This document shows positions 3,940-24,866 of a stretch of 38,267 bases of DNA, one piece after another (position 1 is the first letter of the stretch; the number at the start of each line of letters is the position of its first letter). The stretch comes from Erysipelotrichaceae bacterium. GTDB taxonomy: Bacteria; Bacillota_I; Bacilli_A; Erysipelotrichales; Coprobacillaceae. Where the stretch lies: the NCBI GenBank assembly GCA_021770925.1, contig JAETPY010000019.1, positions 1 to 38,267 of the forward strand. The letters are read 5' to 3'. The notes beneath the pieces are model-generated. The model was not told the origin of the DNA, did no database searches, and was given only the letters and a program-made list of their open reading frames with translations. The translations under genes were made by a program, and so were the position numbers.

Positions 3940-4605
3940 ATGAAAAAAATATCAAAATTAATGATTATCATTTTTATTTTGCTAAATGCAGCTGGCTGTA
4001 CTAATAAAGCGAGTGATAAATTAATCAATACTAATGCGATAAAGGTTGAAGGTGATGGAATTTGTGAACAGACTGCGTCATTAAATGAAAATGTTAACAT
4101 TACTAAAGATATAAAAAATGCATCTGTGGCAGATAATAATGATTTGACTAATTATAATAATAATCAGTTTAATAATGAATCTAAAACTAATGATGTCCAG
4201 GATATTAAACCTGATGAGCAGATGATCAGTGTAAGTATTATGATTGACTGCAAAACTATTTTTGATAATTTAGATGATTTAGAAAGCGGGTATAAGGACT
4301 ATGTTCCTAAAGATGGTATAATCCTGGATGCCATTTCTTTAAAGGTAAAAAAAGGCAGCACAGTATTAGATGTGTTAGAAAACGTAAATCAAAAATATGG
4401 TTTAAATTTAAAAACTCGAAAATCTTCATTTGGGACGTATATTTATGGAATTGGAAATATAGAAGAAAAAATTTGTGGAAGCTCAAGCGGCTGGATGTAT
4501 TGTGTAAATGGTGCTTTTTTAGGACAGAGTGCCAGCTCTTATCGATTAAAAGATGGGGATAAAATCAAATGGTGTTTTACATGTAAACCAGGAGATTTAA
4601 ATTAA
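3940..4605 (+). CDS. DUF4430 (transcobalamin-like beta-domain) lipoprotein
   Basis: This 221-residue protein has a signal peptide with lipobox NAAGC (Cys20), so it should be tethered to the outer membrane face. Residues 21 to about 85 are an Asn/Asp/Lys-rich disordered linker. The C-terminal ~90 residues match the DUF4430 pattern: GSTVLDVLENVN, YIYGIGNI, SSGWMYCVNG, SSYRLKDGDKIKWCF. DUF4430 is the family of the C-terminal beta domain of transcobalamin and intrinsic factor, and in bacteria it accompanies transporters. It heads an operon with ECF transporter genes, so a role in capturing a corrinoid or similar ligand for import is inferred. Start: ATG with AGGAG 11 bases upstream. An isolated ligand-capture role for a different small molecule cannot be excluded. 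Confidence 0.72.
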   Translation: MKKISKLMIIIFILLNAAGCTNKASDKLINTNAIKVEGDGICEQTASLNENVNITKDIKNASVADNNDLTNYNNNQFNNESKTNDVQDIKPDEQMISVSIMIDCKTIFDNLDDLESGYKDYVPKDGIILDAISLKVKKGSTVLDVLENVNQKYGLNLKTRKSSFGTYIYGIGNIEEKICGSSSGWMYCVNGAFLGQSASSYRLKDGDKIKWCFTCKPGDLN

Positions 4606-4624
4606 ATTTTGAAAGGAAATTGAT

Positions 4625-5464
4625 ATGATCATAAAGAATTTTAAAGATAGTCATCCAATAGTATTGTTTAGTTATTTTTTAGCGATTATTATTTTATCAA
4701 TTATTCAGTGTAATTATTATCTAATCGTATTGATAACGTTCTCAGCCCTTTTAGTAGATTATTTTTATAATCGAGATAATTTTTTTAAAGATATAAAATA
4801 TTTTATTATTTTAGTTTTAATCGTTATGGTTAGTAATCCTCTTTTTGTTATGGAGGGTAAAGACATAATTTATCAAAATAGTTACATTACTATTACTAAG
4901 CAGGCAGTAATTTATGGTTTGGTTTTTGGAATGTTATTAGGGAGTATGCTTTTATGGTTCAAGGTGATGAAAAAATGCATTACTGATAGTCATATAGTAT
5001 ATTTATTTGGTTCTATTTTGCCAACTTTAGGTTTGGTGATTTCGATGAGTTTTAATATTATCAATAAATTAAAAAATCAGTATCAAAAAATAAAAGAAGC
5101 TAATTATCATATGCCAACTAAAAATAAATTTGTTTATTATCGTAATATAGTAGTGATCTTAGTTACCTATGCATTTGAATCTTCATTAGATATGATGAGT
5201 TCTATGATTGCTAGAGGGTATGGAAAAACTAAAAGGACAAGTTTCCATTTATATAGTTTTAAAAAAGATGATATGTTGAAATTATTGATTGTTATTGGAT
5301 TAAGTATGATTTGTTTATGGGGATATTTTGGATATTATCGAGATTTTTATTATTATCCAGCTGTTCAAGTATATCATTTTAAGCTGATAGATGCCGTGTT
5401 TTTCTTAGCGTATTTATTATTAGCAGTTTTTCCAATATGGTTAGGAGGAAAGAAAGATGTATAA
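4625..5464 (+). CDS. ECF transporter transmembrane component T (CbiQ-like)
   Basis: The 279-residue polytopic membrane protein has hydrophobic segments near residues 12-45, 58-75, 95-115, 125-145, 218-240 and 250-272. The cytoplasmic coupling region contains SSLDMMSSMIARGYG (Arg197), the hallmark Ala-Arg-Gly coupling motif that contacts the ECF ATPases. In the family, EcfT joins the ATPase pair to the substrate-binding S component. Here T, A-A' and S follow each other with overlaps, forming a dedicated (group I-like) transporter rather than a shared module. The stop overlaps the next start by 8 bases, implying translational coupling. Confidence 0.82.
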   Translation: MIIKNFKDSHPIVLFSYFLAIIILSIIQCNYYLIVLITFSALLVDYFYNRDNFFKDIKYFIILVLIVMVSNPLFVMEGKDIIYQNSYITITKQAVIYGLVFGMLLGSMLLWFKVMKKCITDSHIVYLFGSILPTLGLVISMSFNIINKLKNQYQKIKEANYHMPTKNKFVYYRNIVVILVTYAFESSLDMMSSMIARGYGKTKRTSFHLYSFKKDDMLKLLIVIGLSMICLWGYFGYYRDFYYYPAVQVYHFKLIDAVFFLAYLLLAVFPIWLGGKKDV

Positions 5465-6977
5465 GATTGAAAACTTTAGTTTTACTTATCCAGAAGAAAA
5501 AAATGTAATTAAAAATATTTCTTTTGGTATAAACGAAGGTGATTTTGTCGTAATTTCTGGTAAAAGCGGGTGTGGAAAGACAACTTTATTAAAGCATCTT
5601 AAACCTTCATTAAAGCCTGAAGGTAAGATGAGTGGAACGATTATTTTAGATGAAGAGATTGAGGATGATGATACTAAAATAGGTTTTGTTTTTCAAAATC
5701 CAAATGACCAAATTGTTATGGATAAAGTTTGGCATGAAATTGCTTTTGGTTTAGAAAATACAGCGGTTCCTTTAAAACAGATGAAGCGTAGAGTGGGAGA
5801 AATTGTTAATTATTTTAATTTACAAAATATTATTAGTAGAGATACTCAATCTTTATCTGGTGGGGAAAAGCAGCTGGTTAATCTGGCTAGTGTAATGGTG
5901 ATGAATCCTAAAGTTATATTACTAGATGAAGCAACAGCTCAATTAGATCCGGTTAATAGAGATGAGTTTATTAAAATTTTAAAACAAATCAATGATGATT
6001 TTAATGTAACAGTAATTTTTGTAGAGCATCAATTAGAAGGTTTATTGAATGTTGCTAATCGTTTGATTGTTATGGATGAAGGGAAAATTATCATTGATGA
6101 TGAAATTAAAATGGCTGTGGAAAAGATGCTGGCAAAAGAAATATTTGTTGAATCATTACCTGATTATGTTCGGATTTCCTCTTTAACTGATGAATTATGT
6201 ATGTCTATTAAAGATGCAAGAAAAGCATTGGCTGATTTTGATAATTTTGATATTAAGGAAATTGAAGATGTCGATATTGGCGTATTAATGAAGATAAGGG
6301 ATTTGAATTTTGGCCATGATGATATCGTTTTGAAGAATCTTGATTTGGATATTAGACAAAATGAAATACTTTCAATTGTAGGTGCTAATGGTAGTGGAAA
6401 ATCATCATTTCTTCGCTGTATTGCGGGACTGGTGAAATATCAGGGAGAAGTTACAAAGGTCGGTAATGTTGATAAAATTGGCTATTTACCACAAGATCCA
6501 ACAACATTATTTTTAAGTGATAAAGTAATTGATGATTTGCTGGCAGTTGACGAAAGTATAAAAAGTGTAAATATCCAATTGGATAATTTAGGTATTAGCG
6601 ACTTGAAGGAAAAGCATCCATTTGATTTAAGCGGTGGTCAAAAACAACTGGTAGCTTTGGCTAAAGTGCTTTTAACCAAACCACAGTTATTATTATTGGA
6701 TGAACCAACAAAAGGAATTGATGCTTTAAGTAAAGAAAATTTAGCAGCCTTAATTAGAGGCTTAAGTAAACATATGACAATTATTGTAGCTAGCCATGAT
6801 TTAGAATTTGTTGCAAAAATAAGCGATCGTGTTGCGATGATTTTTAATGGACAAATGGAATCGGTTGATACAATGAGGGAATTTTTTAGTCATAATTTAT
6901 TCTATACAACAACAATTAATAAAATTATTAGATCGAATAATCCTGAAGTAGTATTATTAGAGGATCTGGGCTTATGA
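5457..6977 (+). CDS. ECF transporter fused double ATPase (A-A')
   Basis: Two ABC ATPase domains are joined in 506 residues. Domain 1: Walker A GKSGCGKTT (residues 35-43), Q-loop FQNPNDQ, signature LSGGEKQ, Walker B VILLDEA, switch His in EHQ. Domain 2 starts near residue 280: Walker A GANGSGKSS, Q-loop LPQDP, signature LSGGQKQ, Walker B LLLLDEP, switch His in ASHD. All catalytic motifs are present in both halves. ECF modules usually use two separate ATPases; a fused form is found in dedicated vitamin or cobalt importers. It would energise uptake through the neighbouring T and S proteins. The ribosome binding site AGGAGG lies inside the end of the T gene; the stop overlaps the S gene (ATGA). 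Confidence 0.9.
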   Translation: MYKIENFSFTYPEEKNVIKNISFGINEGDFVVISGKSGCGKTTLLKHLKPSLKPEGKMSGTIILDEEIEDDDTKIGFVFQNPNDQIVMDKVWHEIAFGLENTAVPLKQMKRRVGEIVNYFNLQNIISRDTQSLSGGEKQLVNLASVMVMNPKVILLDEATAQLDPVNRDEFIKILKQINDDFNVTVIFVEHQLEGLLNVANRLIVMDEGKIIIDDEIKMAVEKMLAKEIFVESLPDYVRISSLTDELCMSIKDARKALADFDNFDIKEIEDVDIGVLMKIRDLNFGHDDIVLKNLDLDIRQNEILSIVGANGSGKSSFLRCIAGLVKYQGEVTKVGNVDKIGYLPQDPTTLFLSDKVIDDLLAVDESIKSVNIQLDNLGISDLKEKHPFDLSGGQKQLVALAKVLLTKPQLLLLDEPTKGIDALSKENLAALIRGLSKHMTIIVASHDLEFVAKISDRVAMIFNGQMESVDTMREFFSHNLFYTTTINKIIRSNNPEVVLLEDLGL

Positions 6978-7660
6978 AAATAACTAAAAATGTAATTATT
7001 TTAACTTTAATTGCTGTAATTGCATTATTGGGAGTAGTTTTATTTAAAGATGAAAAGTATAATTTAGTTATTATTTTGATCGTTATGTTATCATGCATAC
7101 CGCTTTATTTTAAGTATGAACATGATAAACCAAAAACTAGGGAAATAGTAGTTCTTGCAATTATGATTGCACTTACAGTAGTTTCACGAATTATTTTTAT
7201 GATTACTCCAAGTTTTAAACCAGTGACAGTAATGATAATTATCTGTGGTATTGTTTTTGGTAGAGCCTCAGGTTTTATGTGCGGTTCATTATCGGCACTG
7301 TTATCTGATTTTGTGTTTGGAATTGGTCCCTGGACACCATTTCAAATGTTTTCCTGGGGAATTATTGGATACATATCAGGTATATTTAGTAAACGTCTTT
7401 ATAAGGATAAATATTGTTTATATGGCTATAGTGTTATTTGTGGAATAGGCTACTCATTAATTATGGATCTGTGGTCTGTTTTGACAATTGAAAATAGTTT
7501 TAATTTGACAAGGTATTTGGCAATTGTACTAACATCTTTGCCAGTGATGTTAGTATATATTGTTTCAAATATAATTTTTATGTTTTTGTTAAGTAAGATA
7601 ATGTTTCAAATCTTACAGCGAGTGAAAATGAAATATGGAATAACGGAGGGAAAAATTTGA
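6974..7660 (+). CDS. ECF transporter substrate-binding S component (CbrT-like, probable corrinoid)
   Basis: The 228-residue membrane protein has two N-terminal hydrophobic segments (to about residue 48) followed by an S-component fold of about six helices. The stretch SFKPVTVMIIICGIVFG, then SLSALLSDF and GPWTPFQMFSWG, matches a family of ECF S components related to the cobalamin transporter CbrT, as I remember it. S components bind the vitamin with high affinity and dock on the T subunit. Substrate is inferred from context: DUF4430 and toroid proteins in the operon and a corrinoid adenosyltransferase downstream. The start overlaps the ATPase stop (ATGA), so translation is coupled. Another cobalamin precursor such as cobinamide is equally possible. 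Confidence 0.7.
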   Translation: MKITKNVIILTLIAVIALLGVVLFKDEKYNLVIILIVMLSCIPLYFKYEHDKPKTREIVVLAIMIALTVVSRIIFMITPSFKPVTVMIIICGIVFGRASGFMCGSLSALLSDFVFGIGPWTPFQMFSWGIIGYISGIFSKRLYKDKYCLYGYSVICGIGYSLIMDLWSVLTIENSFNLTRYLAIVLTSLPVMLVYIVSNIIFMFLLSKIMFQILQRVKMKYGITEGKI

Positions 7661-8775
7661 TGAAAAAATTTATAAGTTTAATTATATCTTTAGTTATTAC
7701 AGCTGGTATTATTGTACCAGTTAATGGACAATCAGATGCTTTGAAAAAAGCGCAGGATTATTGGTTAAATAATAAAGAATTAAACAGTTTGGACGCTATT
7801 TTGACTGTTGAAGCACTTGGTTTAGATGTTGAAGATAGTAAAAATGGATTCATTGTTGATTATGATTTTGGAGCACCTGTCAATAGTTATGGAGATGCAA
7901 TTAATTATGAAGATATGGATTGTGGGTATTTATCAAAAAGTATAATGGCTTTAGCAGCTATGAAAATTGATCCAGCTAAATTCACTTTAACTGATGGTTC
8001 AACTGTAGACTTAGTGGAGATTTTAAAATCAAAAATAGATTCAGAGGGTAATGTTTTTTATGGTAGTGGGAACCCTGAATCAAGTACTGCTTATACAATG
8101 TATGCTTTGGCAATTGTTGATCCTAACTATGATCTTAGTAAATTAGGAGATAAATTAGCTAAGATGCAATTAAGTGATGGATGCTGGGGTTATAATGGTG
8201 CTTGGGGCGGTCCTGATATTACAGGATGGATCGTTGGTGCTTTATCACTATGCGGTGATATGTATCAAAGCTCAATTGATAAAGCTTTAGCTTATTTTGT
8301 CTCTATTCAACAGCCTGACGGGGCATTTGTACCAAGTGATGAATGGAGTGTGGCAAATAGTAATACACAGGGATGTGTAGTTTGGGGATTATTAGAATAT
8401 AATGCGAATATTATAAATGCTGGGATATTTAAAAATGCCTATGATTCATTAATGACATTTATGCTGGAGGATGGATCTTTTGCATATAAAGCTGATCAAG
8501 ATTATGGTGATAGTTATGCGACAATGCAGGCTGCATTAGCATTAGGAGTTTATGAAAATGGTTCACTTTTTATGAATATTCGCAATCAATATGAAAGTAT
8601 AACAAATATTCAGCCGGATGAACCAAAAAAAGATACAAATTCAGAAATAGTAAGTACCCCAGATAATAAAACAGCAGTTTCTGTTGAAACTGGTGATGAT
8701 GCTTTGGTCTTGGTAAGTATGGTTACGATTGTTATTAGTGGTGGGATTTATCTTTTAATTAAAAAAGCTTTTTAA
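7660..8775 (+). CDS. Surface alpha/alpha-toroid protein, transcobalamin alpha-domain-like
   Basis: The 371-residue precursor has a signal peptide (about 1-24, ending near VNGQS). It has a repetitive alpha/alpha-barrel body with prenyltransferase/terpene-cyclase-like turns: DGCWGYNGAWGGPDITGW, PDGAFVPSDEWSVANSN, EDGSFAYKADQDYGDS. A linker leads to a wall-anchor-like tail, VETGDD plus a hydrophobic helix and KK. The same toroid fold forms the N-terminal domain of transcobalamin/intrinsic factor, whose C-terminal domain is DUF4430. Here the two halves are separate surface proteins flanking an ECF importer. No DXDD cyclase acid motif is seen, so a binding rather than enzymatic role is inferred. 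ATG 7660 is chosen over TTG 7657; GGAGGG is 9 bases upstream, overlapping the S-gene stop. Confidence 0.68.
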   Translation: MKKFISLIISLVITAGIIVPVNGQSDALKKAQDYWLNNKELNSLDAILTVEALGLDVEDSKNGFIVDYDFGAPVNSYGDAINYEDMDCGYLSKSIMALAAMKIDPAKFTLTDGSTVDLVEILKSKIDSEGNVFYGSGNPESSTAYTMYALAIVDPNYDLSKLGDKLAKMQLSDGCWGYNGAWGGPDITGWIVGALSLCGDMYQSSIDKALAYFVSIQQPDGAFVPSDEWSVANSNTQGCVVWGLLEYNANIINAGIFKNAYDSLMTFMLEDGSFAYKADQDYGDSYATMQAALALGVYENGSLFMNIRNQYESITNIQPDEPKKDTNSEIVSTPDNKTAVSVETGDDALVLVSMVTIVISGGIYLLIKKAF

Positions 8776-18570: not shown

Positions 18571-20967
18571 ATGTTTAAGACAAAAGAAGAGTTTAAGTAT
18601 GAGTTTTCGAAAAGAATTATTGAAACATATGGAAGAACAGTAGAAGAATCACATCTTACTGAAAAATTTTTAGTATTAGAGTTGATGGTAAGAGACTATG
18701 CTTCAGTAAATTGGGCAACAAGCAAAGCTTTAATTCGTAATAATTATCAAAAACAAATGCATTATTTTTCAATGGAATTCTTAATGGGTCGTTTATTAGT
18801 TAATAATATGATGAACCTTGGGATTTATGATATTGCAAAAGATGGATTGGCAGAATTTGGAATTAATATTCATGATTTAGAAGAACTAGAATCAGATGCT
18901 GGACTTGGAAACGGTGGTTTAGGAAGATTAGCTGCTTGTTTTATGGATTCATTAGCATCACTTGCTTATCCTGGACATGGACATACAATTCGTTATCAAT
19001 TTGGATTATTTAAACAAAAAATTGAAAACGGCTATCAAATTGAATTACCTGATCAATGGATGCAAACAGGATTCAACTGGGAAGTAAGAAAACCAAAACA
19101 TCGGGTTCCAGTTAAATTTTTTGGAAAAATCGTTTATAATGAAGCAACAGGAAAATATGAACATGTAGATGCTGAAGAAGTTTATGCTGTTCCTTATGAT
19201 GTACCAATTGTTGGTAATGGAACAACAACTACTAATACATTAAGATTATGGGATGCAGAAGCTAGTGATAATATTCCTGCAAATCAAAACTTTAGACAGT
19301 ATATCCAAAATGTACGTGATATTTGCCAAATGCTTTATCCAGATGATTCAACACCAGCTGGTAAAATGCTACGTCTAAAGCAAGAATATTTCTTTACTTG
19401 TGCAGGATTAAACTCAATTGTCAAAGCTCATTTAAGGGTTTATCCAAATATGAATAATTTCCATGAAAAGAATGTTATTCAATTAAATGACACTCATCCA
19501 GTACTTGCAATTCCAGAATTGATGAGAATTTTAATTGATGAAAAAGGTTATGAATGGGATGAGGCTTGGGATATTACAACCCAGACATTTGCTTATACAA
19601 ATCATACTATTTTAGCTGAAGCTTTGGAAACTTGGCCAATTGATTTAATGCAGTCATTACTGCCACGCATTTACCAGATCATCGAAGAAATTCATCGTCG
19701 TTTTATTGGTTATGTAAAAATGGTAAGTAATCGAGATGAAGAACTATTAAATCGTGTTATGATTTTAAGAGACGGTACAGTGTATATGGCGCGTCTTGCA
19801 ATTGTGGGAAGCTTTAGTGTTAATGGAGTAGCTCAATTACATTCTGATATTTTAGTTCAACATGAGTTAAAGGATTTTGCAACTTTATATCCAAATAAGT
19901 TTAATAATAAAACTAATGGAGTAACACATCGTCGCTGGCTTGCATACTGTAATCCAGAACTTGCTTCACTAATTAATGAATATATTGGTGATGATTGGAT
20001 CAAAGATCCAGATAAATTAGAAAATTTAATGGATCATGTTGATGATACAGCTTTACAAGAACGTTTCTTAGAGGTAAAACGTGAAAGAAAGCAAATTTTA
20101 GCTGATTATATTTTAGAACATAATGGGATTAAAGTTGATGTTGATAGTATTTTTGATATTCAAGTAAAACGTCTTCATGCATATAAACGCCAATTATTAA
20201 ATGTATTACATATTATTGATTTATATTTTAGAATGAAAGAAAATCCAGATTATCGAATTGAGCCAAGGACATTTATTTTTGGGGCTAAGGCAGCAAGTGG
20301 ATATTATTTTGCAAAAAAGGTAATTAAATTAATTAATAGTGTTGGAGATATTGTAAATAAAGATCCAGAAACAAATAAATATTTAAAAGTAGTTTTCTTA
20401 GAAAACTACGGAGTAACTTTAGCTGAAAAAATTATGCCGGCTGCTGATGTTTCAGAACAAATTTCTACTGCTGGTAAAGAAGCAAGTGGAACTGGTAATA
20501 TGAAATTTATGATGAATGGTGCAATTACTCTAGGAACTTTAGATGGAGCTAATGTTGAAATTTCTCAGCGTGTAGGTGATGAAAACTGTATTATCTTTGG
20601 TATGAAAGATCATGAAGTTAAAGATTTACAATACAGTGGAACTTATAATGCTTGGGATATTTATAATAATAATCCTCATTTAAAACGAGTTATTGATAGT
20701 TTAATGGATGGAACATTTATTGCCAATAGAGAAGAGTTTAGAGTAATTTTTGAAGAATTAATGAATAAAAATGATGAATATTTTGTTTTAGCTGATTATG
20801 ATGCATATTGTAAAGCTCAGGCAAAAGTAAGAGATCTATATCAAGATCGCTTACATTGGGCAAAGGTCTGCTTAATTAATATTGCTAAAAGTGGTTTCTT
20901 CTCTTCAGATCGTACTATTCAAGAATATGTTGATGATATCTGGCATTTAGATAAAGTGAAGTTTTAA
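18571..20967 (+). CDS. glgP: Glycogen/maltodextrin phosphorylase
   Basis: The 798-residue GT35 enzyme releases glucose-1-phosphate from glycogen ends using PLP. Signature regions are HYFSMEFLMGRLL and DAGLGNGGLGRLAACF near the N-terminus, NDTHPVLAIPELMR, VKRLHAYKRQLLN and the PLP-lysine motif EASGTGNMKF (Lys645). Length and domain order are standard. Its product feeds the phosphoglucomutase at 10355. The start, ATG 18571, follows AAGGGGAAG. It is co-transcribed with glgB and closed by a terminator; a CRISPR array follows, then pulA. Confidence 0.95.
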   Translation: MFKTKEEFKYEFSKRIIETYGRTVEESHLTEKFLVLELMVRDYASVNWATSKALIRNNYQKQMHYFSMEFLMGRLLVNNMMNLGIYDIAKDGLAEFGINIHDLEELESDAGLGNGGLGRLAACFMDSLASLAYPGHGHTIRYQFGLFKQKIENGYQIELPDQWMQTGFNWEVRKPKHRVPVKFFGKIVYNEATGKYEHVDAEEVYAVPYDVPIVGNGTTTTNTLRLWDAEASDNIPANQNFRQYIQNVRDICQMLYPDDSTPAGKMLRLKQEYFFTCAGLNSIVKAHLRVYPNMNNFHEKNVIQLNDTHPVLAIPELMRILIDEKGYEWDEAWDITTQTFAYTNHTILAEALETWPIDLMQSLLPRIYQIIEEIHRRFIGYVKMVSNRDEELLNRVMILRDGTVYMARLAIVGSFSVNGVAQLHSDILVQHELKDFATLYPNKFNNKTNGVTHRRWLAYCNPELASLINEYIGDDWIKDPDKLENLMDHVDDTALQERFLEVKRERKQILADYILEHNGIKVDVDSIFDIQVKRLHAYKRQLLNVLHIIDLYFRMKENPDYRIEPRTFIFGAKAASGYYFAKKVIKLINSVGDIVNKDPETNKYLKVVFLENYGVTLAEKIMPAADVSEQISTAGKEASGTGNMKFMMNGAITLGTLDGANVEISQRVGDENCIIFGMKDHEVKDLQYSGTYNAWDIYNNNPHLKRVIDSLMDGTFIANREEFRVIFEELMNKNDEYFVLADYDAYCKAQAKVRDLYQDRLHWAKVCLINIAKSGFFSSDRTIQEYVDDIWHLDKVKF

Positions 20968-20981
20968 AAATATAAAAATTT

Positions 20982-21012
20982 AAAAGAGCTGATTTATAAA
21001 ATCAGTTCTTTT
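20982..21012 (+). terminator. Terminator after glgP
   Basis: AAAAGAGCTGATTT and AAATCAGTTCTTTT form a 14-bp stem (one G-T pair) with a short loop; TTTT is in the right arm. Confidence 0.8.
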
Positions 21013-21207
21013 ATCATTATCATCAATATAAGTTTACCAGGCGTAATTTCTTTGCAAATTCCCAAAACTGTTGGGAGAGTAAGAGTTTAAGAGATTTTTA
21101 TATGAAATTATTAAAAATAGAATATAGCTGGTAAAAAAATAGAAAAGTGTTGATATATAAAGGTTTTGAGGTATAATAGAACATGTAAAGTGGTTTATTT
21201 ACTAGGG
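21013..21207 (+). promoter_or_regulatory. CRISPR leader with promoter
   Basis: This AT-rich 195-bp segment precedes the first repeat. It holds TTGATA (21150-21155), a 16-bp spacer and TATAAT (21172-21177), giving a start near 21184, just ahead of the first repeat at 21208. The distal end of the array has the degenerate repeat, so this side is the leader side and transcription runs on the plus strand. Confidence 0.7.
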
Positions 21208-22486
21208 GTTTAATAACAACATAAGATGTATTGAAACCCCCGACAAGGTATGCTTTCTTATTGGCGTTACGAAGTTTAATAACAACATAAGATGTATTGA
21301 AACTGAAAAGACTTCGTTATTATTATAAAGAAGAATATAGTTTAATAACAACATAAGATGTATTGAAACAAGTGTAAAAGGTGTTAAAATGTTCACAAGC
21401 AAAATGTTTAATAACAACATAAGATGTATTGAAACAAATTTCTTATATTGCCTTTTTCATCAACAATTAAGTTTAATAACAACATAAGATGTATTGAAAC
21501 GGATGCTAATGGAAAGCCTTTAGATCCTCGACAGGTTTAATAACAACATAAGATGTATTGAAACTATACTTTGTTTATATCTTCCTTTACTGCTATTGCG
21601 TTTAATAACAACATAAGATGTATTGAAACAGTGGTTTTACATCAAATGTGTTGTAAACAAAATCGTTTAATAACAACATAAGATGTATTGAAACAAGATT
21701 GTGCATATCGCTTTCAGATAGTTTCTATCTGTTTAATAACAACATAAGATGTATTGAAACGCTTTTAGTTCCTCTACAGTTTCGTTTAGCTTTTTACGTT
21801 TAATAACAACATAAGATGTATTGAAACTAAGGTAATTTCTTTTTAATAAAATATCTCCGTTTGTTTAATAACAACATAAGATGTATTGAAACAATATAAG
21901 TTGTGTCTGTTTTATTGAAGTGACACAGTTTAATAACAACATAAGATGTATTGAAACTTCGTAGTAAAGTCTTCTGTAGACAGTTGTTTTCCATGTTTAA
22001 TAACAACATAAGATGTATTGAAACGCTCTATCCGTACGGGCAAATAAAGTAAATCTTGTTGGTTTAATAACAACATAAGATGTATTGAAACCGCATACGA
22101 TTTTTCTATTAAAAATAACATGGCTAAGTTTAATAACAACATAAGATGTATTGAAACCGCATACGATTTTTCTATTAAAAATAACATGGCTAAGTTTAAT
22201 AACAACATAAGATGTATTGAAACTACTTTCCAATAGTATATCTTTAAAATTTGGTTTAGGTTTAATAACAACATAAGATGTATTGAAACTATTTAGTATT
22301 AACAATATAATATTTTGTAAACAATGTTTAATAACAACATAAGATGTATTGAAACCCATAGCAACTTTATTGTTACACATAGGATTATTCGTTTAATAAC
22401 AACATAAGATGTATTGAAACTCATATTATTATCACTATAGAGATTATTGTGATGCTGTTTAATAACAACATAAGATATATAAGAAT
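21208..22486 (+). CRISPR. CRISPR array: 20 repeats of 30 bp, 19 spacers
   Basis: The 30-bp repeat begins GTTTAATAAC and ends GTATTGAAAC. Nineteen copies are identical, starting at 21208, 21274, 21340, 21406, 21471, 21535, 21600, 21665, 21731, 21798, 21863, 21928, 21995, 22062, 22128, 22194, 22260, 22326 and 22391. The twentieth (22457-22486) matches for 20 bases and then degenerates. Spacers are 34-37 bp, mostly 35 or 36. Spacers 14 (22092-22127) and 15 (22158-22193) are identical. The ATTGAAAC 3' end is typical of type I-B and type III repeats, but no cas gene is present, so the type is inferred from the repeat only. Hydrophobic repetitive peptides read on the minus strand here are repeat artefacts. 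Confidence 0.98.
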
Positions 22487-22728
22487 TTAATTAGTTTTAT
22501 AAAAAATATAATATGCTTGTGAAGCCTTGTTTAGGGGCGTTTTATTTTTTATTATTGATAAATATTTTTTGAACTCAAAAGATGTAAATAGATTCTTTAT
22601 TTTAATTTTTGTTTTTAATAAAGAAAAAACTTAGACTTTTTGGTTATTTAGTTTAAGATATAAATAATAAGTATAATTTAACTTGAAAAATTGTATAATA
22701 AAAGGAAAGATAAGTAACGTTTATTGCA

Positions 22729-22757
22729 TTGCCTTAGTTAAAAATATAAGATATAAT
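22729..22757 (+). promoter_or_regulatory. Promoter of the pulA operon
   Basis: TTGCCT (22729-22734), 17 bases, TATAAT (22752-22757), 24 bases before ATG 22782. This suggests a short leader with a GGGGTG ribosome binding site. Confidence 0.55.
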
Positions 22758-22781
22758 GAGGTAGAAAAATGGGGTGAAATT

Positions 22782-24866
22782 ATGGAAAAAAGTGCCGTTA
22801 GAATGATTGCACAAGTAGTAGCTTTGAAAAAAATAGAAGTATTACTCTTGAAAAAATATTATGAAGGTAATAGCCCAAGATTTTATTTACGTGATTTAAA
22901 TAGCGGTGATTTAAAAGAAATAAAAATTTCAGGTAAGTATATAGAAGAACAATTTGTACATTACTATTTCGATGATATTGAAATAGATTTTTGTCATGTT
23001 TATCAAATTGTTGATGCTTATGGATTAACAGAGATACTGCAATATACTAAGCTTGTTTGTGACCATGAATTTTTAAAGCAAAATTATTATGATGGTGATG
23101 ATTTAGGGTGTCACTATCGCCCTGGATATACAACATTTAAAGTATGGGCTCCAACTGCTTTGCAGATGAAGGTTTCAATTACTAAGAATAATAATACTTA
23201 TACATATGAAATGCAAAGAGTAGATAATGGTGTGTTTTATGCGAAAGTATCTGGTGATTTTGATAATTGTCAGTATGTATATTTAGTTAGACATCATGAG
23301 GGTTTCTATCCTGCATTAGATCCATATGCATATAGTTCATCTTCAAATAGTTTAAGCAGTATAATAATAGATTTAGATAAAGTTAAAATAGATTTAAATC
23401 GTGACAAGCTTCCAACATTAGTAAATAAAACGGATGCTATTATATACGAGGTTAGTGTTCGTGATTATACAATGTATGAAAATAGTCTAAGTGCCTATAA
23501 GGGAAAATTTAAAGGAATATGTGAAGAAGGGTTAAAGACCAAGCATGGTAATAGTGCGGGATTAGATTACCTAGTTGAACTAGGGATTACCCATTTGCAA
23601 TTAATGCCAATATTTGATTTTGCAACAGTTGATGAAAGTAATCCTGAATTATTATATAATTGGGGCTATGATCCAGCCCAATATAATGTTCCTGAAGGAA
23701 GTTACTGTAGTGATCCAAATGATGGTTATAGCCGTGTTGTTGAATGTAAGGAAATGATTTCTAAATTACATTCTAAAGGTATAAGAGTTGTTATGGATGT
23801 TGTTTATAATCATATGTATGATGTAAATGCAAGTGCATTCGAAAGATTAGTACCTGGATATTATTTTAGAAAAAATCATGATGGGACGCTATCTAATGGT
23901 TCGTGGTGTGGTGATGATTTAAATAGTCAGGAACATATGGTAAGAAAGTATATTCTTGACATGTCTAAACGCTGGCAGCAGTTTTACGGTGTTGATGGTT
24001 TTCGTTTTGACCTGATGGGAATAATTGATATTACTACAATTAATCAAGTTTATGAAATGTGTTCAAGCCATGATAAATCATTCCTTATCTATGGAGAAGG
24101 CTGGAATATGCCAACAAATTTACCAGATGAAAAAAAAGCTATGCAGGACAATCATGCTAAGATGTTAAATATTAGTTTTTTTAATGATGAATTTCGTGAG
24201 GTCATAAAAGGTGGCAGCGGTGATTTTGTTTTGGTGAATAAAGGGTTTATTACAGGAAATCTTTATGAAACAGAACATGCTAAAAATATAATCTCTGGAT
24301 TAAATCGTTACTCAAAACCAGATCAGTCAGTTAATTATGTTGAATGCCATGATAATGCGACTGTTTTTGATAAATTATATATATCAAATGTTGAAGAAGG
24401 ATTATCGGGAATTTTAAATCGTCAGAAAAATTTGACGATCATGACATTATTAGCTCAGGGAATTCCATTTATTCATGCAGGACAGGAATTTTATCGCACT
24501 AAAGGCGGAATATATAATTCGTATAATACTTCAGATAATATAAATTGTATAAATTGGGATTTTAGAGATATCTATAAAGATGATATTGATGATATTAAAA
24601 AAATAATTCAGTTACGTAAAAACAATAAATGTTTTCGATATGCAACAAGAGAAGAAATTGAAAAAAATGTTTTAGTTGAAAATATAGATTATAAGATGGT
24701 AAAATATACACTCAAACAAGATAGTGGAGAATATAAAGAATTTATAATTTATATTAACCCATCTAGTTTTACTTTTGATTATCAGGAAAAAGAATATAGT
24801 TGTATCTATGGCAATATAAATGATAGTCAAATTGGACCTAAAACTATTGTTGTTCTAGCAAAGTAA
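22782..24866 (+). CDS. pulA: Type I pullulanase (glycogen debranching enzyme)
   Basis: The 694-residue GH13 enzyme hydrolyses alpha-1,6 branches of glycogen or pullulan. It has an N-terminal beta domain, a CBM48-like domain (TTFKVWAPTALQMKV) and the catalytic barrel. The type I pullulanase signature YNWGYDP is at residues 292-298. Catalytic parts are VMDVVYNHMY, GFRFDLMG (Asp410), IYGEGWNM (Glu439) and YVECHDNATV. No signal peptide is seen, so it acts inside the cell, complementing GlgP by removing branches. ATG 22782 follows GGGGTGAAATT and a good promoter; an upstream in-frame extension to 22683 lacks both. The gap to pth is 11 bases, so pulA-pth-mfd probably share a transcript. Confidence 0.93.
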   Translation: MEKSAVRMIAQVVALKKIEVLLLKKYYEGNSPRFYLRDLNSGDLKEIKISGKYIEEQFVHYYFDDIEIDFCHVYQIVDAYGLTEILQYTKLVCDHEFLKQNYYDGDDLGCHYRPGYTTFKVWAPTALQMKVSITKNNNTYTYEMQRVDNGVFYAKVSGDFDNCQYVYLVRHHEGFYPALDPYAYSSSSNSLSSIIIDLDKVKIDLNRDKLPTLVNKTDAIIYEVSVRDYTMYENSLSAYKGKFKGICEEGLKTKHGNSAGLDYLVELGITHLQLMPIFDFATVDESNPELLYNWGYDPAQYNVPEGSYCSDPNDGYSRVVECKEMISKLHSKGIRVVMDVVYNHMYDVNASAFERLVPGYYFRKNHDGTLSNGSWCGDDLNSQEHMVRKYILDMSKRWQQFYGVDGFRFDLMGIIDITTINQVYEMCSSHDKSFLIYGEGWNMPTNLPDEKKAMQDNHAKMLNISFFNDEFREVIKGGSGDFVLVNKGFITGNLYETEHAKNIISGLNRYSKPDQSVNYVECHDNATVFDKLYISNVEEGLSGILNRQKNLTIMTLLAQGIPFIHAGQEFYRTKGGIYNSYNTSDNINCINWDFRDIYKDDIDDIKKIIQLRKNNKCFRYATREEIEKNVLVENIDYKMVKYTLKQDSGEYKEFIIYINPSSFTFDYQEKEYSCIYGNINDSQIGPKTIVVLAK

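What the first reader, a model, noticed from the sequence alone, without database searches (positions are those of the whole stretch)
21013..22486. CRISPR array without cas genes inserted in the glycogen gene cluster
Nineteen identical 30-bp repeats plus a decayed last one, with a leader promoter (TTGATA-16-TATAAT), lie between glgP and pulA; no cas gene is present within about 16 kb on the right or 21 kb on the left. Perfect repeats and clean 34-37 bp spacers suggest the array is still maintained, so it probably uses Cas proteins from elsewhere. The ATTGAAAC repeat end points to type I-B or III.
Basis: partly seen in the sequence, partly recalled or inferred. Interest (0 to 1): 0.55.

Follow-up and report, generated by a model that had tools for sequence, protein, structure and literature searches.

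The report
Satellite CRISPR array served in trans
The repeats are a real and apparently active bacterial immune memory bank that has no enzymes of its own beside it but shares its repeat and control region with a complete CRISPR-Cas system elsewhere in the same genome; this is a known arrangement, with an unusually well-conserved mirrored signal in its control region.

Summary
The array is real: 19 perfect 30-bp repeats plus a decayed 20th (window 21208-22486), 19 spacers of 34-37 bp (18 distinct), and a leader with a promoter, between glgP and pulA, with no cas gene found in the window. A complete type I-B operon (cas6-8b-7-5-3-4-1-2) lies on another contig, directly beside a three-repeat array with the same repeat and a similar leader. 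The genome's type III-B/RT-Cas1 locus uses a different repeat. So this is a type I-B satellite array served in trans, a known arrangement (C. difficile 630 has 12 arrays). It looks active: a near relative has the same site, over 99% identical just outside the array, but its seven spacers are all different; four relatives have a short empty site; the newest spacer matches a prophage head gene in a sister species, with CCT beside it. One less ordinary point: the leader carries an inverted 8-bp pair, TTTACCAG...CTGGTAAA, 95 bp apart, kept letter for letter across genera while the DNA between has randomised; in one genus both halves differ but still match. Inverted leader motifs were noted in C. 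difficile; the geometry and paired change may be new.

The parts
21033..21040 (+). leader, outer arm TTTACCAG of the long-range inverted pair (-175 from repeat 1)
21128..21135 (-). leader, inner arm (CTGGTAAA on +, i.e. TTTACCAG on -; -80 from repeat 1)
21150..21177 (+). leader promoter-like site TTGATA-16-TATAAT
   Evidence: similar sequence in most Thomasclavelia-genus leaders of the alignment
21198..21207 (+). leader end TTTACTAGGG abutting repeat 1; a near copy of the arm motif, with one more G than most paralogues
21208..22420 (+). CRISPR array: 19 perfect 30-bp repeats with 34-37 bp spacers
21238..21273 (+). spacer 1 (leader-proximal, so by convention the newest); 1 mismatch to a prophage minor head gene in G039, 5' flank CCT
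21501..21534 (+). spacer 5; 1 mismatch in G039 and 2 in G038 to a remnant that by eye reads as a broken peptidoglycan-binding (lysin-like) frame, 5' flank GCA in both
22092..22193 (+). spacers 14 and 15, identical, with the repeat between them
22457..22486 (+). degenerate terminal repeat
   Evidence: identical in the orthologous array of G039
18571..20967 (+). glgP, left neighbour (not part of the system)
22782..24866 (+). pulA-like, right neighbour (not part of the system)

Best explanation
A type I-B CRISPR array that works as a satellite. Its leader and repeat match those of the array beside the only I-B cas operon found in the genome, so Cas1-Cas2-Cas4 made from that operon insert new spacers here, the leader promoter makes the precursor RNA, Cas6b cuts it within the repeat leaving the ATTGAAAC tag (tag rule recalled), and Cascade (Cas8b, 7, 5) with Cas3 attacks phage DNA. 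Shown from sequence: the shared repeat and leader, open cas genes, complete difference of spacers at an otherwise near-identical site in a relative, a site that is empty in other relatives, and a prophage match of the leader-proximal spacer. Inferred: transcription, processing, acquisition in trans, interference. Also inferred: the inverted leader pair TTTACCAG/CTGGTAAA is the docking signal for the adaptation machinery or a DNA-bending partner.
For: Same repeat, 0 mismatches, twice on C6 (14782-14877; a third copy with 1 mismatch), directly downstream of cas1-cas2. Operon: Cas6b, Cas8b, Cas7b, Cas5b, Cas3b, Cas4b, Cas2b by PADLOC and Cas1b by NCBIfam; cas3 is open over 839 aa with HD and P-loop motifs. 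Leaders of C4, C6 and C25 align throughout. The array at the same site in G039 has 7 spacers, none at least 80% like any of the window's 19, although the 240 bp before the array, the 325 bp from the decayed repeat to pulA, and pulA itself are 99.6, 99.1 and 99.6% identical (glgB/glgP further left 91.6%). G038 has the empty site between flanks 90 and 86% identical. Of 4 distinct spacers searched in 43 family genomes at up to 3 mismatches, 2 have protospacers in sister species; spacer 1 lies in a head gene among terminase, portal, scaffold and capsid genes, 5' flank CCT, fitting the CCN motif reported for C. difficile I-B (PMC8406132, abstract and passages).
Against: No expression data. 8 of 8 exact scans of IMG/VR with cores of 8 spacers (7 from the window, 1 from C25) found nothing; the array against 50,697 phage and 72,556 plasmid records gave only chance-level matches. 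2 of the 4 spacers searched in the family had no match. The spacer 5 protospacer has GCA, not CCN. My pattern for the Cas3 DExH box found no match. The cas-side array has 2 spacers against 19 here, the reverse of the usual trend (PMC12814883, section 15 read). The jump from 91.6 to over 99% identity at the site means that segment was exchanged between species, so the spacer block could have been swapped by recombination rather than replaced one by one. The genome is fragmented (176 contigs, 89% complete), so another I-B cas1 could be missing.
Confidence: 0.92

Rival explanations
1. A stranded relic: the array no longer gains spacers and is merely kept.
For: No cas genes nearby; decayed sister relics exist in this genome (C149) and relatives. 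Recombination could account for the different spacers in G039.
Against: Perfect repeats; no shared spacer with the array at the same site in G039 although the leader differs at 1 of 230 bases and the decayed repeat is identical; the leader keeps the two motif arms that four one- or two-repeat relics lack; the leader-proximal spacer matches a phage gene.
Confidence: 0.05
2. The array feeds the type III-B/RT-Cas1 locus on C131 instead of, or as well as, the I-B system.
For: The III-B locus is in the same genome with an RT-Cas1 fusion and Cmr6, and its own array has two repeats only. Sharing between I-B and III-B is discussed in PMC12814883 (passages).
Against: Its repeat (GTTGCACCTTATCTAATGAGGAATTGT) is unlike this one; the identical repeat sits beside the I-B operon. 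Loading of I-B crRNAs into the III-B effector is not excluded.
Confidence: 0.08
3. The array has a regulatory rather than defensive role in the glycogen cluster.
For: Its position between glgP and pulA, occupied in three of nine genus genomes.
Against: No spacer matches the window outside the array at up to 7 mismatches; spacers at this site are not shared between the genomes compared; other arrays of the family lie on other contigs and in other places.
Confidence: 0.02
4. The inverted leader pair is a transcription regulator's operator pair, not an adaptation signal.
For: The inner arm ends 14 bp before the -35 box.
Against: The exact motif is absent from 1 kb upstream of cas6; the arms survive in G003 and G006, where the promoter stretch has changed; different Cas1 lineages go with different arm sequences.
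Confidence: 0.35

Closest known systems
Clostridioides difficile type I-B with multiple dispersed arrays (PMC8406132; abstract and passages seen)
   Same: I-B cas operons serving many arrays (12 in strain 630, some in prophages); CCN motif; 'two conserved inverted repeat motifs' noted upstream of every array (its Fig. S6, not seen).
   Different: Another genus, and most C. difficile strains have two or three cas operons. The C. difficile motif sequence and spacing were not available to me, so identity with TTTACCAG/CTGGTAAA could not be tested. Here the motif is followed across genera with near-invariant spacing and a paired change.
Arrays with a cas-identical repeat at a distance (PMC12814883; abstract, outline, passages and section 15 seen)
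   Same: Arrays with the same repeat are reported to gain spacers at comparable rates whatever their distance to cas.
   Different: Here the distal array is far longer (19 spacers) than the cas-side one (2), opposite to the usual trend.
IHF-dependent leaders with upstream motifs, types I-E, I-F, I-C (Santiago-Frangos et al. 2021; recalled, seen only as a reference, not held)
   Same: Short leader motifs at fixed phase that help dock Cas1-Cas2.
   Different: Here one motif is used in two opposed copies about 95 bp apart in a type I-B leader; the protein is unknown.
Sulfolobus islandicus I-A leader with Csa3a distal and Cas1 proximal motifs (PMC9456107; abstract and passages seen)
   Same: A distal and a proximal leader element; mutating the distal one lowers acquisition.
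   Different: Those two motifs differ and bind two proteins; here the motif is the same, inverted, and no csa3a-like gene was sought.

Membership tests
CRISPR array | identical direct repeats with distinct spacers of near-constant length | tested here: met
   19 perfect repeats, 19 spacers (18 distinct) of 34-37 bp
CRISPR array | leader on one side and a decayed terminal repeat on the other | tested here: met
CRISPR array | spacers match mobile elements | tested here: met
   spacer 1 in a prophage head gene; of 4 spacers searched in the family, 2 had a match; phage, plasmid and IMG/VR searches negative
CRISPR-Cas type I-B | Cas8b with Cas5, Cas7, Cas3 and Cas6 in one operon | tested here: met
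   on C6, not beside this array
CRISPR-Cas type I-B | adaptation genes cas4-cas1-cas2 with a linked array of the same repeat | tested here: met
CRISPR-Cas type I-B | crRNAs with an 8-nt 5' tag made by Cas6b | not testable with these tools
   needs small-RNA sequencing; the repeat ends in ATTGAAAC
CRISPR-Cas type III-B with RT-Cas1 | this array shares the repeat of the III-B locus | tested here: not met
   the C131 repeat differs
C. difficile type I-B leader with paired inverted motifs | the same motif sequence and spacing | not tested
   Fig. S6 of PMC8406132 not seen; motif letters unknown to me

The most novel reading that the evidence does not exclude
Leaders served by Cas1b-type integrases carry a long-range inverted pair of a short motif at a fixed spacing from each other and from repeat 1, whose letters change together between lineages (TTTACCAG/CTGGTAAA about 95 bp; TTTTCCCAAGT/ACTTGGGAAAA 95 bp; TTCGACCATC/GATGGTCGAA-like about 60 bp; TTTTGCGGTCAATCT/AGATTGACCGCAAAA 184 bp apart in the III-B/RT-Cas1 leader, with a third partial copy midway by eye). 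The pair would be a docking site by which the adaptation complex, or a partner that loops the leader, marks which arrays are live, and would explain how one cas operon keeps several satellite arrays active.
Probability: 0.4. Interest if true: 0.55.

Novelty: new member of a known kind. Interest (0 to 1): 0.3.

Why it matters
The array itself is ordinary for type I-B bacteria with several arrays. What it adds is a natural set of paralogous and orthologous leaders (intact, decayed and empty sites in one genus) in which the parts needed for spacer acquisition can be proposed from conservation. The paired inverted motif gives a specific, testable candidate for how Cas1-Cas2 finds distant arrays in type I-B systems of these Firmicutes.

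Tried and rejected
Protospacers in public viruses: the array with its leader against phages and plasmids gave only chance-level matches, best E 0.1 and 0.03; 8 exact IMG/VR scans of single-spacer cores gave 0 hits. Because of caps, 14 of the 18 distinct window spacers were never searched in the family genomes and 11 of 18 never in IMG/VR.

Rfam on the window: 0 matches. Folding of the repeat as RNA: -2.1 kcal/mol, no better than shuffles.

Idea that the inverted pair is the ends of a small mobile element that carried the leader: judged unlikely, since the array lies outside the pair, which stops about 70 bp before repeat 1. Idea of an RNA hairpin: judged unlikely, since both arms lie upstream of the promoter-like site in the window.

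Results against the leader reading: for the window leader alone the inverted pair is not significant against shuffles (p 0.093); 8 of 18 leaders tested had p above 0.05; and for 2 of the 10 with p 0.03 or less (G083_C36, G003_C13) the best pair lay elsewhere. One six-repeat array (G039_C86) has no motif and no recognisable leader. The stretch from the inner arm to -12 is 53-67% identical among the four leaders that share the motif (47-68% if G033_C6b is included), somewhat more than the stretch between the arms, and had no shuffle baseline of its own. The trailer control covers 17 arrays, not one for every leader; the lowest trailer p was 0.065. The C131 leader was tested over 300 bp and a wider distance range than the others. 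The leaders of one genome and genus are related by descent, so their shared motif is not so many independent events. The phylum-wide Cas1 search added only two genomes (G028, G013); their leaders show inverted pairs by eye but were not put through the shuffle test.

The inserts at the glgP-pulA site in G040 (a 259-aa ORF) and G042 (an ORF of at least 385 aa on the other strand; the glgP end was not reached) were not identified by any search.

Literature: searches. The four Thomasclavelia+CRISPR papers and the RT-Cas1 papers were seen as listings with abstract starts only.

Full report
What is there. Window 21208-22486 holds 19 perfect copies of GTTTAATAACAACATAAGATGTATTGAAAC and a 20th that keeps its first 20 bases. 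The 19 spacers are 34-37 bp; 18 are distinct, because numbers 14 and 15 are the same. A promoter-like site, TTGATA-16-TATAAT, lies at 21150-21177. The neighbours are glgB, glgP, pulA, peptidyl-tRNA hydrolase and mfd. No cas gene was found: 20 of the 36 ORFs were given to PADLOC and the only Cas-named hits were weak helicase cross-hits of Mfd; Pfam named 4 more; 12 were not scanned.

Where the Cas proteins are. The window is all of contig C4 of a 2.88-Mb genome in 176 contigs. The same repeat, up to 3 mismatches, occurs on three other contigs: C6 (3 copies, two of them perfect), C25 (4 copies with one shared change, plus a decayed one) and C149 (one copy, a relic). On C6 the array directly follows cas1 and cas2, and the operon reads cas6b, cas8b, cas7b, cas5b, cas3, cas4b, cas1b, cas2b; cas3 is open over 839 aa with HD and P-loop motifs, though my pattern for a DExH box found none. 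A second cas1 on C131 is a fusion of a reverse transcriptase with Cas1 beside Cmr6 (type III-B), and its two-repeat array has an unrelated repeat. So the window array belongs by repeat and leader to type I-B. From contig coordinates array and operon are at least about 29 kb apart; in the single-contig relative G037 the cas8b and pulA loci are about 0.9 Mb apart.

Relatives. The repeat, up to 3 mismatches, is in 8 of 43 family genomes, 5 of 9 in the genus. Cas8b is in 6 of 9 genus genomes. The glgP-pulA junction holds an array in 3 of 9 genomes (the window genome, G039, G035), is short and empty (167-219 bp) in 4 (G036, G037, G038, G041), and holds another insert in G040 and G042. In G038 the empty site lies between flanks 90 and 86% identical to the window. 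The site was therefore filled in part of the genus, or emptied in G038.

Is it alive. The G039 array at the same site has a leader with one difference in 230 bp and the same decayed last repeat, but none of its 7 spacers is at least 80% like any of the window's 19. The 240 bp from glgP to the array, the 325 bp from the decayed repeat to pulA, and pulA are 99.6, 99.1 and 99.6% identical, while glgB/glgP to the left are 91.6%. So this segment was exchanged between the two species recently, and the spacers have been wholly replaced since, or were swapped in the exchange. Spacer 1, next to the leader, matches with one mismatch a minor head gene in G039 that lies among terminase, portal, scaffold, major head and tail genes, with CCT on the 5' side. 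CCN is the reported motif of C. difficile I-B (PMC8406132; abstract and passages). Spacer 5 matches a remnant in G039 and G038 with GCA on the 5' side; by eye the frame resembles a broken peptidoglycan-binding domain. Spacers 13 and 14 had no match outside the array in 43 genomes. None of the four searched spacers hits its own genome outside the array at up to 3 mismatches, and none of the 19 matches the window elsewhere at up to 7 mismatches. 8 IMG/VR scans and the phage and plasmid searches were negative.

The leader. Aligned leaders of the family show an 8-bp motif twice in opposite directions: TTTACCAG at -172 to -175 and CTGGTAAA at -77 to -80 from repeat 1. Of 28 arrays with at least 190 bp upstream, 18 have both arms exactly, 4 have one exact arm, and 6 have neither. 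Of those 6, four are relics of one or two degenerate repeats (G000_C149, G035_C48, G038_C6, G039_C222), one is a six-repeat array without a recognisable leader (G039_C86), and one (G033_C6b) has a different matched pair. Two further arrays (G038_C100, G039_C119) begin too near a contig end to judge; a third skipped row (G033_C6) is the rest of the G033_C6b array. Between the leaders of G000_C4, G003_C60, G006_C4a and G036 (three genera) the arms agree at 16 of 16 positions in all 6 pairs, whereas the stretch between the arms is 44-57% identical under an aligner whose shuffled baseline is 55%; the stretch from the inner arm to -12 is 53-67%. In G033_C6b both arms differ from the usual motif and still match each other over 12 bases. 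A third near copy, TTTACTAG, abuts repeat 1 in the window. Against 300 dinucleotide shuffles each, 10 of 18 leaders have an inverted pair at p 0.03 or less, and 8 do not, the window leader among them (p 0.093). Of the 10, eight have their arms between about -200 and -69; G083_C36 and G003_C13 scored on stretches nearer the repeat. The III-B leader of C131, tested with a longer stretch, has 15-bp arms (p 0.003). None of 17 trailer flanks reached p 0.05 (lowest 0.065). A second family, from genomes with Cas1 about 30-34% identical to this one, has TTCGACCATC-like arms about 60 bp apart. The exact motif is not in the 1 kb upstream of cas6, which speaks against a common regulator of array and operon.

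What is known. Many I-B arrays served by I-B cas operons are established in C. difficile (12 arrays in strain 630; two or three operons in most strains), and the same paper mentions 'two conserved inverted repeat motifs' upstream of every array, without a tested function in the passages seen (PMC8406132; the figure was not seen). A survey reports that arrays with identical repeats gain spacers at similar rates regardless of distance to cas (PMC12814883, abstract) and that distal arrays are usually shorter (section 15); here it is the reverse. Leader motifs that place the integrase are described for another type (PMC9456107, abstract and passages). The search (Thomasclavelia and CRISPR) listed 4 papers, none with a title about CRISPR arrays of the genus; that is a narrow search of one open-licence library.

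Verdict. The paired leader motif is the part worth a specialist's look; its role in spacer acquisition is an inference from conservation and position.

Noticed in passing
G000:C131, L027 13319-19671: Type III-B locus with an RT-Cas1 fusion and a two-repeat array; its leader has a 15-bp inverted pair 184 bp apart with, by eye, a third partial copy midway.
   Followed up: partly
window 20968-24866 against G039 (L121): Identity jumps from 91.6% in glgB/glgP to over 99% from the glgP end through pulA: a recently exchanged segment that starts at the array site.
   Followed up: partly
G000:C149 18181-18210 (L026): Relic mini-array: one near-intact repeat, a spacer-like stretch and a decayed repeat, with a leader remnant that lacks the promoter region.
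   Followed up: partly
G038:C6 13082 (L085) and G039:C222 6044 (L098): Orthologous relics of one or two repeats without a leader upstream of a signal-peptidase-like gene (name by eye); could be checked as CreTA-like units.
   Followed up: partly
window 21198-21208: The number of G at the leader-repeat junction varies between arrays (TACTAGG, TACTAGGG, TACTAGGGG before TTTAAT), which may record imprecise integration.
   Followed up: no
G000:C25 8924-9150 and G035:C24: The repeats of an array share a private change (ATAGGAT), and the cas-side array of the window genome ends in GAAAT although its other two repeats end in GAAAC: arrays seem to homogenise from their first repeat.
   Followed up: no
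window 3940-8775: Operon with a DUF4430 protein, a double ABC ATPase and an ECF-type S component: probably a vitamin-uptake ECF transporter. PADLOC's mad3 and AriA hits to the ATPase look generic.
   Followed up: no
G039:C86 199-556 (L094): Six-repeat array without the conserved leader.
   Followed up: no
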